From Spiroplasma floricola 23-6 (GTDB lineage: Bacteria > Bacillota_I > Bacilli_A > Mycoplasmatales > Mycoplasmataceae), in contig NZ_CP025057.1 in assembly GCF_002813555.1 (NCBI RefSeq), forward strand, positions 868,001 to 932,000: a stretch of DNA of 64,000 nucleotides, given 5' to 3'. Made by a program: the position numbers and the translations under genes. The notes below the pieces were generated by a model. That model did no database searches. It saw only the letters and a list, made by a program, of their open reading frames with translations, and was not told the origin of the DNA. Within the stretch, counting starts at the first letter, position 1, and each line of letters begins with the position of its first letter. Positions 19,644-61,703 of this stretch are shown piece after piece.

Positions 19644-19745
19644 CTAACCGTGATTAGTGTCAGTTGAACACATTTGACATTCAGCACAGTTATCATCTAA
19701 GTCACAAGAGCAATTACAATCTTTGCAATCTTTATTACATTCCAT
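19644..19745 (-). CDS. Cys-rich mini-protein (possible metal-binding peptide)
   Basis: ATG at 19745 is preceded by AAAGGAAGTGA and opens a 33-codon frame with eight cysteines in CxxxCxxCxCxC and CxxCxxC spacing, beginning MECNKDCKDCNCSCD and ending TDTNHG. Asp and Asn fill the gaps. The Cys pattern is that of metallothionein-like or zinc/copper-binding peptides. A dedicated terminator follows and a housekeeping gene (mtnN) lies upstream, so it is a monocistronic unit. An in-frame ATG seven codons upstream is possible but lacks a ribosome-binding site. A second such peptide is at 60230. Confidence 0.7.
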   Translation of the reverse strand: MECNKDCKDCNCSCDLDDNCAECQMCSTDTNHG

Positions 19746-19799
19746 GATTACGTCACTTCCTTTCATATATATTTTATTACTTTTTAAGTAAATATTTTT

Positions 19800-60038: not shown

Positions 60039-60169
60039 ATTCTTAAGCCTCCTTGATAATTTTGATTAAGATAATAAGCAAAATAATAATACCAAAAAAT
60101 ATAAAAGAATACTCATTTTTTTACTATAAATAATAATTTTTTTTAAAAAAAACTGAAAAAAAGATTAAT

Positions 60170-60225
60170 TTGTAGTATTATCTATATAGATAGATGTCTA
60201 TATAGATAACTATCTTAAGGAGGAT
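60170..60225 (+). promoter_or_regulatory. Promoter/operator of the metallothionein-like gene
   Basis: Two copies of TCTATATAGATA lie at 60181-60192 and 60197-60208, 16 bases apart; each core is a perfect palindrome (ATCTATATAGAT at 60180-60191). They stand just upstream of the strong AAGGAGGAT ribosome-binding site (60217-60225) and overlap the region where a promoter must lie. This is the typical layout for an ArsR/SmtB-type operator. Confidence 0.65.
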
Positions 60226-60229
60226 TACT

Positions 60230-60301
60230 ATGAATAAAATTTCTTCAGCATGTAATTGTGAAGTATGTACTTGTTCAAATTGTACTTGTTCAAATTGCTA
60301 A
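60230..60301 (+). CDS. Metallothionein-like mini-protein
   Basis: A 23-codon frame MNKISSACNCEVCTCSNC plus TCSNC, with seven cysteines in CxCxxCxCxxCxCxxC spacing, that is 7 of the last 16 residues. The spacing matches metal-thiolate cluster peptides such as bacterial metallothioneins. It has an excellent ribosome-binding site, its own promoter with palindromic operator, and a terminator, so it is a real gene despite its size. The convergent neighbour is an ArsR/SmtB-type repressor rich in cysteine. Likely role: binding of excess Zn, Cd or Cu(I); the metal is not known. Confidence 0.75.
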   Translation: MNKISSACNCEVCTCSNCTCSNC

Positions 60302-60313
60302 TAAAAATTTTTT

Positions 60314-60342
60314 AAAATAGAGTTTATATAGCTCTATTTTTT
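60314..60342. terminator. Bidirectional terminator
   Basis: AAAATAGAG/CTCTATTTT stem, 9 bp, with T runs on both strands, between the convergent metallothionein-like gene and arsR-type gene. Confidence 0.75.
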
Positions 60343-60658
60343 ATTTATTACAATTTGAGCAGTTCATTAGTTTTTTCTCTTCTTGTATTGAACCTATAAA
60401 ATTGTTTATTTCTTTTATCATTTCTTGATTTACTTTATATATCTTTGAGTTTTTTTCTTTTGTAGAATTTAAAATCCCAACTTTTTCTAACATTTTCATA
60501 TGATAACTTAAAGTTGGTTGAGTAATGTTTAAGTTATCTAATATATTTTGAGCACATTTATTACATCCACAATCGCAGATCATATTAATAATTTTTAATC
60601 TTGTTGGATCTGCTAGAGTTTTAAAAACTTCTGCAAATTTTGTATATTTTTTTTCCAT
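60341..60658 (-). CDS. ArsR/SmtB-family metal-responsive repressor
   Basis: 105 residues. Winged helix-turn-helix: FKTLADPTRLKIINMI, QNILDNLNITQPTLSYHMKMLEKVGIL (recognition helix), then YKVNQEMIKEINNFI. In the alpha-3 position ICDCGCNKC offers four cysteines (ArsR and CadC use CVCD-type sites there), and the tail adds NCSNCNK. Thus a thiolate metal site is likely, with release of DNA on metal binding. The tail motif CSNC recurs in the metallothionein-like peptide. Probable target: the TCTATATAGATA repeats at 60181-60208. Its own upstream region has no clear copy. Confidence 0.88.
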   Translation of the reverse strand: MEKKYTKFAEVFKTLADPTRLKIINMICDCGCNKCAQNILDNLNITQPTLSYHMKMLEKVGILNSTKEKNSKIYKVNQEMIKEINNFIGSIQEEKKLMNCSNCNK

Positions 60659-60803
60659 GTATAAAACCTCTATTTATCTCAATAATTTAAATAATTATAT
60701 CAATTTTACATAAATTATTTTTGAACTTTATTTTTTTAAATAAAATAAAATTTTATTTAAAAAAAATGTGTAAAATAATAATAGTAAATTAGGAGTGATT
60801 AAA

Positions 60804-61703
60804 GTGAGAAAATTACTTAGCGTAATTTCAGCCACAACACTAGTTGGAACATCAACTTTAACTGTTGTTTCTTGTAGTTCAAATAAAAATTATAAAGAAT
60901 TTAAAGGATGAATTGATAATAAAGAATCATTCATTTTATATATAGGAGCAGATAACTGTCCACATTGTCAAGATTTTGAATTCGTACAAAAAAAATACGA
61001 TAAAAAATTTAATGATAAAATTAATGAGTTAAATACAAGTTATAACCAAAAAGTTGTAAATCAACAAGGATCTGAAAATCCAGATTCACTTATTGCATAT
61101 GGTGAAAAATTAAACAATGATGTTAATTTAAGAACATTTAAAACAGAAGAATATCAAAGTAAATTTACTGAAAAGTGAACAAAAAATATTCTAAATTGAA
61201 TGATTGATGAAGTAACTGAGATTTATAAAAAACAATATACTATTGGCGATAATATGAGCGATAAATTAGCAACAAAATTAGCTAAAGCAAAAGTAAAAAA
61301 ATACTTTAATCTTGATGCAACTCAGGGATTTCCAATGTTTATATTAGTTAGAAATGGTAAATTAGTTTCTTGACAAAGTGGTTTTGGCAGTCAATCTGCT
61401 GGAGGATGAACTGAAACTTTACTTGATGATTTATTTGATCCTTTAATAACTGCAATGAATAACGGAGAACAAGAAGCTGAAATTATTAAAAAAGTAGATA
61501 CAGGATTAAACTCTGGTGGAGGCGAAACTGGATCTGGTGGAGAAACTGGATCTGGTGGAGAAACAAAAAATAAACCTAAAACTAAGGCTAAAGCCAATAC
61601 TAAAACTAACCCTAAAGTTAAAAGTAACAATAAAGCTAAATCAGTAAATTATTCAATAAGTGATAATCTTTTAATTGATTACTTAACTAATACAATTATC
61701 TAG
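60804..61703 (+). CDS. Thioredoxin-motif lipoprotein
   Basis: 299 residues; GTG start with AGGAGTG upstream. Signal peptide with lipobox VVSC (Cys24), then ILYIGADNCPHCQDFEF with a CxxC redox site at 52-55 and, near residue 185, QGFPMFILVRNG with the cis-Pro of the thioredoxin fold. Between these lies a helical insert. The tail has Gly/Ser repeats (GGGETGSGGETGSGGET) followed by a Lys-rich stretch (PKTKAKANTKTNPK). It probably acts as a thiol-disulfide oxidoreductase or reductant on the cell surface. Terminator follows 6 bases after the stop. Confidence 0.8.

What the first reader, a model, noticed from the sequence alone, without database searches (positions are those of the whole stretch)
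60170..60658. Minimal metallothionein-repressor pair in a Mollicute
A 23-residue peptide with seven cysteines behind two palindromic boxes and convergent with a Cys-rich ArsR/SmtB-type repressor looks like a miniature version of the cyanobacterial smtA-smtB system. The CSNC motif is shared between peptide and repressor tail, which could allow metal exchange between them. I know of no such pair described in Mollicutes.
Basis: partly seen in the sequence, partly recalled or inferred. Interest (0 to 1): 0.72.

Follow-up and report, generated by a model that had tools for sequence, protein, structure and literature searches.

The report
Tiny metallothionein with its metal-sensing repressor
An insect- and plant-associated Spiroplasma and nine of its relatives carry an overlooked gene for a 21-28-residue, cysteine-packed peptide, almost certainly a tiny metal-binding metallothionein, which a neighbouring repressor probably switches on when a toxic metal (most likely copper) appears, and which seems to stand in for a copper pump these species lack.

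Summary
The genome length matches Spiroplasma floricola 23-6 exactly. A 23-residue, 7-Cys peptide gene (60230-60301, +) with a good Shine-Dalgarno lies convergent to an ArsR/SmtB-family repressor (60341-60658, -).

It is not chance: 10 of 20 genomes of the genus keep peptide, repressor and operator together. In the tenth (S. culicicola by length) the same cassette sits at another locus. The peptides keep CxCxxCTCxxCxC while their other residues, lengths and Cys codons vary.

The "two boxes" read better as the arms of one 12-2-12 operator just behind the -10. The same dyad occurs in three other family genomes with a related repressor: before a repressor + 21-aa/7-Cys peptide operon, before a repressor with only an uncertain 8-codon ORF, and before a CPC P1B-ATPase + repressor operon.

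No mini-metallothionein genome has a P1B heavy-metal ATPase (0/13 versus 20/47 others in the family), so copper buffering is my leading reading. However, the repressor's closest relatives outside Mollicutes sit in arsenic operons, and metal and regulation are untested.

It works like smtA-smtB, but differs in peptide family, gene order and sensor site. Verdict: real; a new, miniature variant of a known kind.

The parts
60153..60181 (+). putative sigma-70-type promoter of the peptide gene: CTGAAA (60153-60158), 17 nt, TATTAT (60176-60181)
   Evidence: read from sequence; TATTAT is kept in all 10 orthologous loci; no start-site data
60181..60206 (.). candidate operator: 12-2-12 inverted repeat TCTATATAGATA-GA-TGTCTATATAGA, overlapping the end of the -10 box (most other species have a perfect repeat with GT spacer)
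   Evidence: core ATATAGATA-NN-TATCTATAT recurs in G209, G207 and, with 2 mismatches, G154 at promoters linked to related repressors
60217..60223 (+). Shine-Dalgarno AAGGAGG, 6 nt before the ATG
   Evidence: kept in all 10 loci
60230..60301 (+). mini-metallothionein gene, 23 aa, 7 Cys: MNKISSACNCEVCTCSNCTCSNC
60314..60340 (.). terminator-like hairpin AAAATAGAG...CTCTATTTT between the convergent stop codons
   Evidence: read from sequence; similar hairpin with T run downstream of the peptide in the other loci
60341..60658 (-). ArsR/SmtB-family repressor, 105 aa, with Cys cluster C28-x-C30-x-C32-xx-C35 before/at helix alpha3 and C100-xx-C103 in the tail

Best explanation
The pair is an inducible metal-buffering cassette. 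A constitutively made ArsR-family dimer sits on the 12-2-12 operator behind the -10 box and blocks transcription of the peptide gene. When a thiophilic metal rises in the cytosol, it binds the repressor's Cys cluster (C28/30/32/35, perhaps with C100/C103) and the repressor leaves. The 23-residue peptide is then made and wraps the metal through its seven thiolates. Cu(I) is the most likely metal (about 0.5), with the peptide standing in for the Cu(I)-exporting P1B-ATPase that these species lack. Shown here by sequence: real coding gene, conserved cassette, operator geometry, cassette relocation, absence of P1B ATPases. Inferred: DNA binding, direction of control, metal binding and metal identity.
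For: (1) Peptide, operator and convergent repressor occur together in 10 of 20 genus genomes, and the other 10 have neither gene. (2) Protein-level conservation: CxCxxCTCxxCxC kept in all but slight variants of the first residues, TGT/TGC interchange (57/10), lengths vary by whole codons 21-28 aa. (3) Cassette is between rpmG and a lipoprotein gene in nine genomes, elsewhere in G183, whose rpmG-lipoprotein site is empty. (4) Operator core found at 1 mismatch or fewer in 12 of 13 family genomes with a related repressor versus 3 of 47 without; the 13th (G154) has it with 2 mismatches before a P1B ATPase + repressor operon. (5) G209: operator + repressor + 21-aa, 7-Cys peptide. (6) P1B ATPase over cut-off: 0 of 13 mini-MT genomes, 20 of 47 others in the family; within the genus 0/10 versus 7/10, and the six read have Cu(I)-type CPC, YN and S-S motifs. 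(7) Same Cys count and CxC, CxC, CxC, C order as the 26-residue Cu-thioneins of Neurospora and Agaricus (PMC4755600). (8) Repressor fold and profile closest to metalloregulatory ArsR/SmtB proteins.
Against: No expression, binding or metal data. The complementary distribution rests on few independent events: the nine main carriers form one clade, whole genera g7, g10 and g12 lack the ATPase anyway, and three genus genomes have neither system. Pooled pN/pS of the peptide is 0.70, so residues between cysteines are weakly constrained. Closest repressor relatives outside Mollicutes are in arsenic operons. Typical alpha3N and alpha5 metal sites are not present. A CxC-rich peptide could equally bind Zn, Cd or As.
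Confidence: 0.62

Rival explanations
1. A Zn(II)/Cd(II) buffering pair working like cyanobacterial smtA-smtB: Zn or Cd releases the repressor and the peptide binds about two divalent ions.
For: The ArsR-controlled bacterial metallothioneins described in the papers read (smtA, nmtA) respond to Zn/Cd, nmtA's repressor also to Cu (PMC8790569; PMC7387436).
Against: No alpha5 site (repressor has a single His, H53) and no His in the peptide; P1B ATPases in the sister species read have Cu(I)-type motifs.
Confidence: 0.17
2. An arsenite sponge: As(III) binds three repressor cysteines, and the peptide chelates As(III) in a lineage without arsenite exporters.
For: The repressor's nearest relatives outside Mollicutes carry ELCACDIL, often plus a C-terminal CxC, and lie beside ArsA, Acr3-like (SBF) and ArsP genes; best structural match is an As(III)-responsive ArsR, 6j0e; no Acr3 in the genus.
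Against: The C-A-C motif has become C-A-Q here; a related Mollicute repressor with the same operator type is in an operon with a CPC P1B ATPase, not an arsenite pump.
Confidence: 0.12
3. A thiol-redox or sulfane-sulfur buffer: the repressor senses oxidation or persulfide through its Cys cluster as BigR, SqrR or HlyU do, and the peptide is a thiol sink.
For: ArsR fold includes BigR, HlyU and SqrR; both proteins are Cys-rich; a thioredoxin-like lipoprotein with CPHC is the next gene (Pfam, below cut-off).
Against: That lipoprotein is equally present where the cassette is absent; repressor scores far below the BigR cut-off (33 versus 155 bits); the related repressor goes with a metal ATPase.
Confidence: 0.07
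4. Chance ORF, Cys-codon leader peptide or non-coding RNA, not a working protein.
For: 23 codons is below usual gene-calling length; no transcript data.
Against: Frame, start, SD, stop and Cys pattern kept in 10 genomes with codon-sized indels; no downstream co-oriented gene to attenuate, since the next gene is convergent; zero such ORFs in shuffles.
Confidence: 0.02

Closest known systems
smtA-smtB (Synechococcus), bmtA-bxmR (Oscillatoria), nmtA-azuR (Anabaena)
   Same: Metallothionein gene under an ArsR/SmtB-family repressor with a 12-2-12 inverted repeat near the promoter (PMC8790569).
   Different: Peptide 21-28 aa with no Pfam or NCBIfam match and no His in this window; convergent order (smtA-smtB is divergent, azuR is unlinked); no alpha5 site and only one alpha3N Cys; repressor of an arsenic-operon-like lineage; AT-rich dyad ATATAGATA-NN-TATCTATAT.
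Neurospora crassa / Agaricus bisporus Cu-thioneins (26 aa, 7 Cys)
   Same: Size, 7 Cys, and motif order CxC, CxC, CxC, C (PMC4755600).
   Different: Spacers 2-2-2 instead of 5-3-2; bacterial; presumably convergent; metal not measured.
Mycobacterium tuberculosis MymT
   Same: Small bacterial metallothionein with a copper-detoxification role (PMC7387436).
   Different: No sequence relation tested; MymT is about twice as long and differently regulated (own knowledge).
As(III)-responsive ArsR of Firmicutes (ELCACDIL type) and 6j0e
   Same: Closest repressor relatives outside Mollicutes, about 36-48% identity; best structure match.
   Different: CxC of alpha3 replaced by C-A-Q with a new CDCGCNKC cluster; partner gene is a peptide, not an arsenic pump.

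Membership tests
ArsR/SmtB metalloregulators | winged HTH of the family by profile and fold | tested here: met
   PF01022 44.1 bits (cut-off 22), NF033788 66.1 (cut-off 55); AlphaFold model pLDDT 87.8, best PDB matches include ArsR, SmtB, CzrA and CadC
ArsR/SmtB metalloregulators | 12-2-12 operator near the target promoter | tested here: met
   60181-60206, one mismatch between arms here, perfect in most other species; binding itself not tested
ArsR/SmtB metalloregulators | alpha5 metal site DxHx10Hx2E | tested here: not met
   only His in the protein is H53; helix alpha5 78-94 has none
ArsR/SmtB metalloregulators | alpha3N site: ELCVCDL-type CxC plus N-terminal Cys | tested here: not met
   C35 is the invariant first Cys, second is Q37, no Cys in residues 1-27; instead C28, C30, C32
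ArsR/SmtB metalloregulators | metal-dependent release from DNA | not testable with these tools
   needs gel shift or fluorescence anisotropy
metallothioneins (broad, by composition) | short, Cys-rich with CxC motifs, few or no aromatic residues | tested here: met
   23 aa, 7 Cys (30%), 3 CxC, no F, W, Y or H
metallothioneins (broad, by composition) | binds metal through thiolate clusters | not testable with these tools
   needs mass spectrometry or titration
bacterial SmtA/BmtA metallothionein family | profile match to a curated metallothionein family | tested here: not met
   no Pfam or NCBIfam match at E<=1; a 23-aa query has limited power
smtA-smtB locus architecture | divergent genes sharing one operator region | tested here: not met
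   genes convergent, operator only before the peptide

The most novel reading that the evidence does not exclude
A Mollicute class of regulated bacterial Cu-thioneins only 21-28 residues long, among the shortest metallothioneins known. It is controlled by a repressor recruited from the arsenic-sensing ArsR lineage through a new Cys4 cluster, has replaced the Cu(I)-exporting ATPase, and travels as a cassette, with unannotated cousins in further genera of the family.
Probability: 0.4. Interest if true: 0.72.

Novelty: new variant of a known kind. Interest (0 to 1): 0.57.

Why it matters
Few bacterial metallothioneins have a tested function. A 23-residue one with its own repressor in a wall-less, genome-reduced insect symbiont would give a minimal, synthesizable metal-buffering switch, and would suggest how Spiroplasma species without copper pumps cope with copper in insect hosts. 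It also suggests that gene finders miss a class of Cys-rich peptides in Mollicutes.

Tried and rejected
Chance ORF (rejected: shuffles and conservation). Wider regulon in this genome (no other exact box; one-mismatch hits no more frequent than the reversed-pattern control). CSNC metal-exchange idea (motif not conserved). Peptide as Cys attenuation leader (no co-oriented downstream gene). PDB search with the peptide: nothing. Cys-rich ORFs with a Shine-Dalgarno near 80 relatives of the repressor: only scattered ORFs that I judged chance; the Williamsoniiplasma lucivorax (G207) candidate is only 8 codons (MCPDCGCC) and is not counted as a carrier. Papers on metallothionein in Spiroplasma/Mycoplasma: none relevant. 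The Spiroplasma diminutum/S. taiwanense expression paper's main text does not mention ArsR, copper or metals; its supplements could not be opened.

Full report
WHAT IS THERE. The window is C1:868001-932000 of a single 1,284,130-bp chromosome. That length equals the published chromosome of Spiroplasma floricola 23-6 (PMC5908944). The same match of lengths names G183 as S. culicicola and G184 as S. diminutum (PMC5091035) and G188 as S. monobiae (PMC5940939). At 60230-60301 (+) lies a 23-codon ORF, MNKISSACNCEVCTCSNCTCSNC, with SD AAGGAGG six bases upstream. Convergent to it, at 60341-60658 (-), is a 105-aa ArsR/SmtB-family protein above the curated cut-offs of HTH_5 and NF033788.

NOT CHANCE. 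First-order Markov shuffles of the window gave no ORF of 12-45 aa with six or more Cys in 40 trials. The repressor has orthologues of 57-89% identity in nine other genomes of the genus. Each carries, just beyond the repressor's 3' end and convergent to it, a 21-28-aa peptide built on CxCxxCTCxxCxC, a Shine-Dalgarno and the same operator. The remaining ten genus genomes have neither gene. Cys codons alternate TGT/TGC, lengths differ by whole codons, and the core cysteines are invariant while intervening residues drift; pooled pN/pS is 0.70. So it is conserved as a protein, mainly in its cysteines.

THE CASSETTE MOVES AS A UNIT. In nine genomes the cassette lies between rpmG and a thioredoxin-like lipoprotein gene. 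In the genus genomes without it, no cassette is seen beside rpmG, and in most of them the lipoprotein-type gene follows directly. G183 has an empty rpmG-lipoprotein site and carries the whole cassette at another locus; in the pepP tree it lies outside the nine-genome clade.

THE OPERATOR. The -10 TATTAT runs into TCTATATAGATA-GA-TGTCTATATAGA (60181-60206), a 12-2-12 inverted repeat. Most other species have perfect arms and a GT spacer. G154 has ATATTGACA-AT-TATCTATAT in front of a P1B ATPase (CPC; His-rich N-terminus) whose stop is followed within 20 nt by a related repressor. TATAGATA-NN-TATCTATA at 1 mismatch or fewer was found in 12 of 13 family genomes with the repressor and 3 of 47 without. 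This is the strongest evidence for repressor-operator-target linkage. 12-2-12 repeats near the start site are the recognised target form of this family (PMC8790569).

OTHER MINI-METALLOTHIONEIN-LIKE PEPTIDES. G209 (same genus as W. lucivorax, g12): operon of repressor and MCNCNCKCNDCTCASNGTSCK. G200 (g10): MIRSNSKCKCENCTCTNCTCAAPQEGCC, no repressor near. G157 (g7): MSNNKCTCQNCSCADCNCNNSKECNNCTCSTTECHCD (E = 0.0018, weaker). None beyond this family in 320 genomes of the order at E<=0.01.

WHICH METAL. P1B heavy-metal ATPases over the TIGR01525 cut-off occur in seven genus genomes, all without the cassette. In the six I could read, the motifs (CPC, YN, and a paired serine in the last helix) are those of Cu(I) pumps, by established P1B motif knowledge; G178 and G180 have CsoR-CopZ-CopA-like operons, the other four a separate HMA protein. 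No cassette genome has one (Fisher p = 0.003, not corrected for descent). Across the family: 0 of 13 carriers versus 20 of 47 others (p = 0.003). The association rests on few independent events, because the nine main carriers are one clade and whole genera lack the ATPase. The window peptide also has the Cys count and motif order of the 26-residue Cu-thioneins of Neurospora and Agaricus (PMC4755600). Against copper: relatives of the repressor outside Mollicutes (about 36-48% identity) lie next to ArsA, Acr3-like and ArsP genes in the ones inspected, and the best PDB match is As(III)-responsive ArsR 6j0e. A tree puts the 13 Mollicute repressors together (93/91 support) among these sequences. 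In the Spiroplasma ones the arsenic-type C-A-C of alpha3 has become C-A-Q with an added CDCGCNKC cluster, which suggests a changed sensor site. No Acr3 was found in the genus.

MECHANISM. Inferred: repressor dimer on the dyad blocks the promoter; metal binding to its Cys cluster releases it; the peptide chelates the metal and is shut off as the metal falls. The operator is absent before the repressor gene in the window, so the repressor is probably constitutive in Spiroplasma and autoregulated in Williamsoniiplasma.

FILING. It works like smtA-smtB. The repressor is a member of the ArsR/SmtB fold family but meets neither the alpha5 nor the alpha3N site definition. The peptide is a metallothionein by composition only and matches no curated family. 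New variant of a known kind.

Noticed in passing
19644-19766 (-); likely start at 19745: Second Cys-rich small protein, MECNKDCKDCNCSCDLDDNCAECQMCSTDTNHG (33 aa, 8 Cys), next to a PNP_UDP_1-family nucleosidase gene; conserved in the close relatives, with divergent forms in G183, G186, G195 and G207, so not tied to the cassette; no Pfam match.
   Followed up: partly
L020 / L200 (G154): P1B-type ATPase with a long HNHSE repeat at its N-terminus, in an operon with a repressor related to the window's and with a similar operator.
   Followed up: partly
L025 (G149): A more distant Mollicute ArsR-like protein with CGCSDC and a C-terminal CNC lies next to a small HMA-like ORF with CSSC, seen by eye: another possible copper-linked ArsR.
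   Followed up: no
L150 (G200), 1501-1587: Stand-alone mini-metallothionein-like ORF near an rnjA-like gene without the dyad or a repressor nearby; its control is unknown.
   Followed up: partly
60795-61703 (+): Lipoprotein with a thioredoxin-like CPHC motif; similar genes lie beside rpmG in much of the genus whether or not the cassette is present.
   Followed up: no
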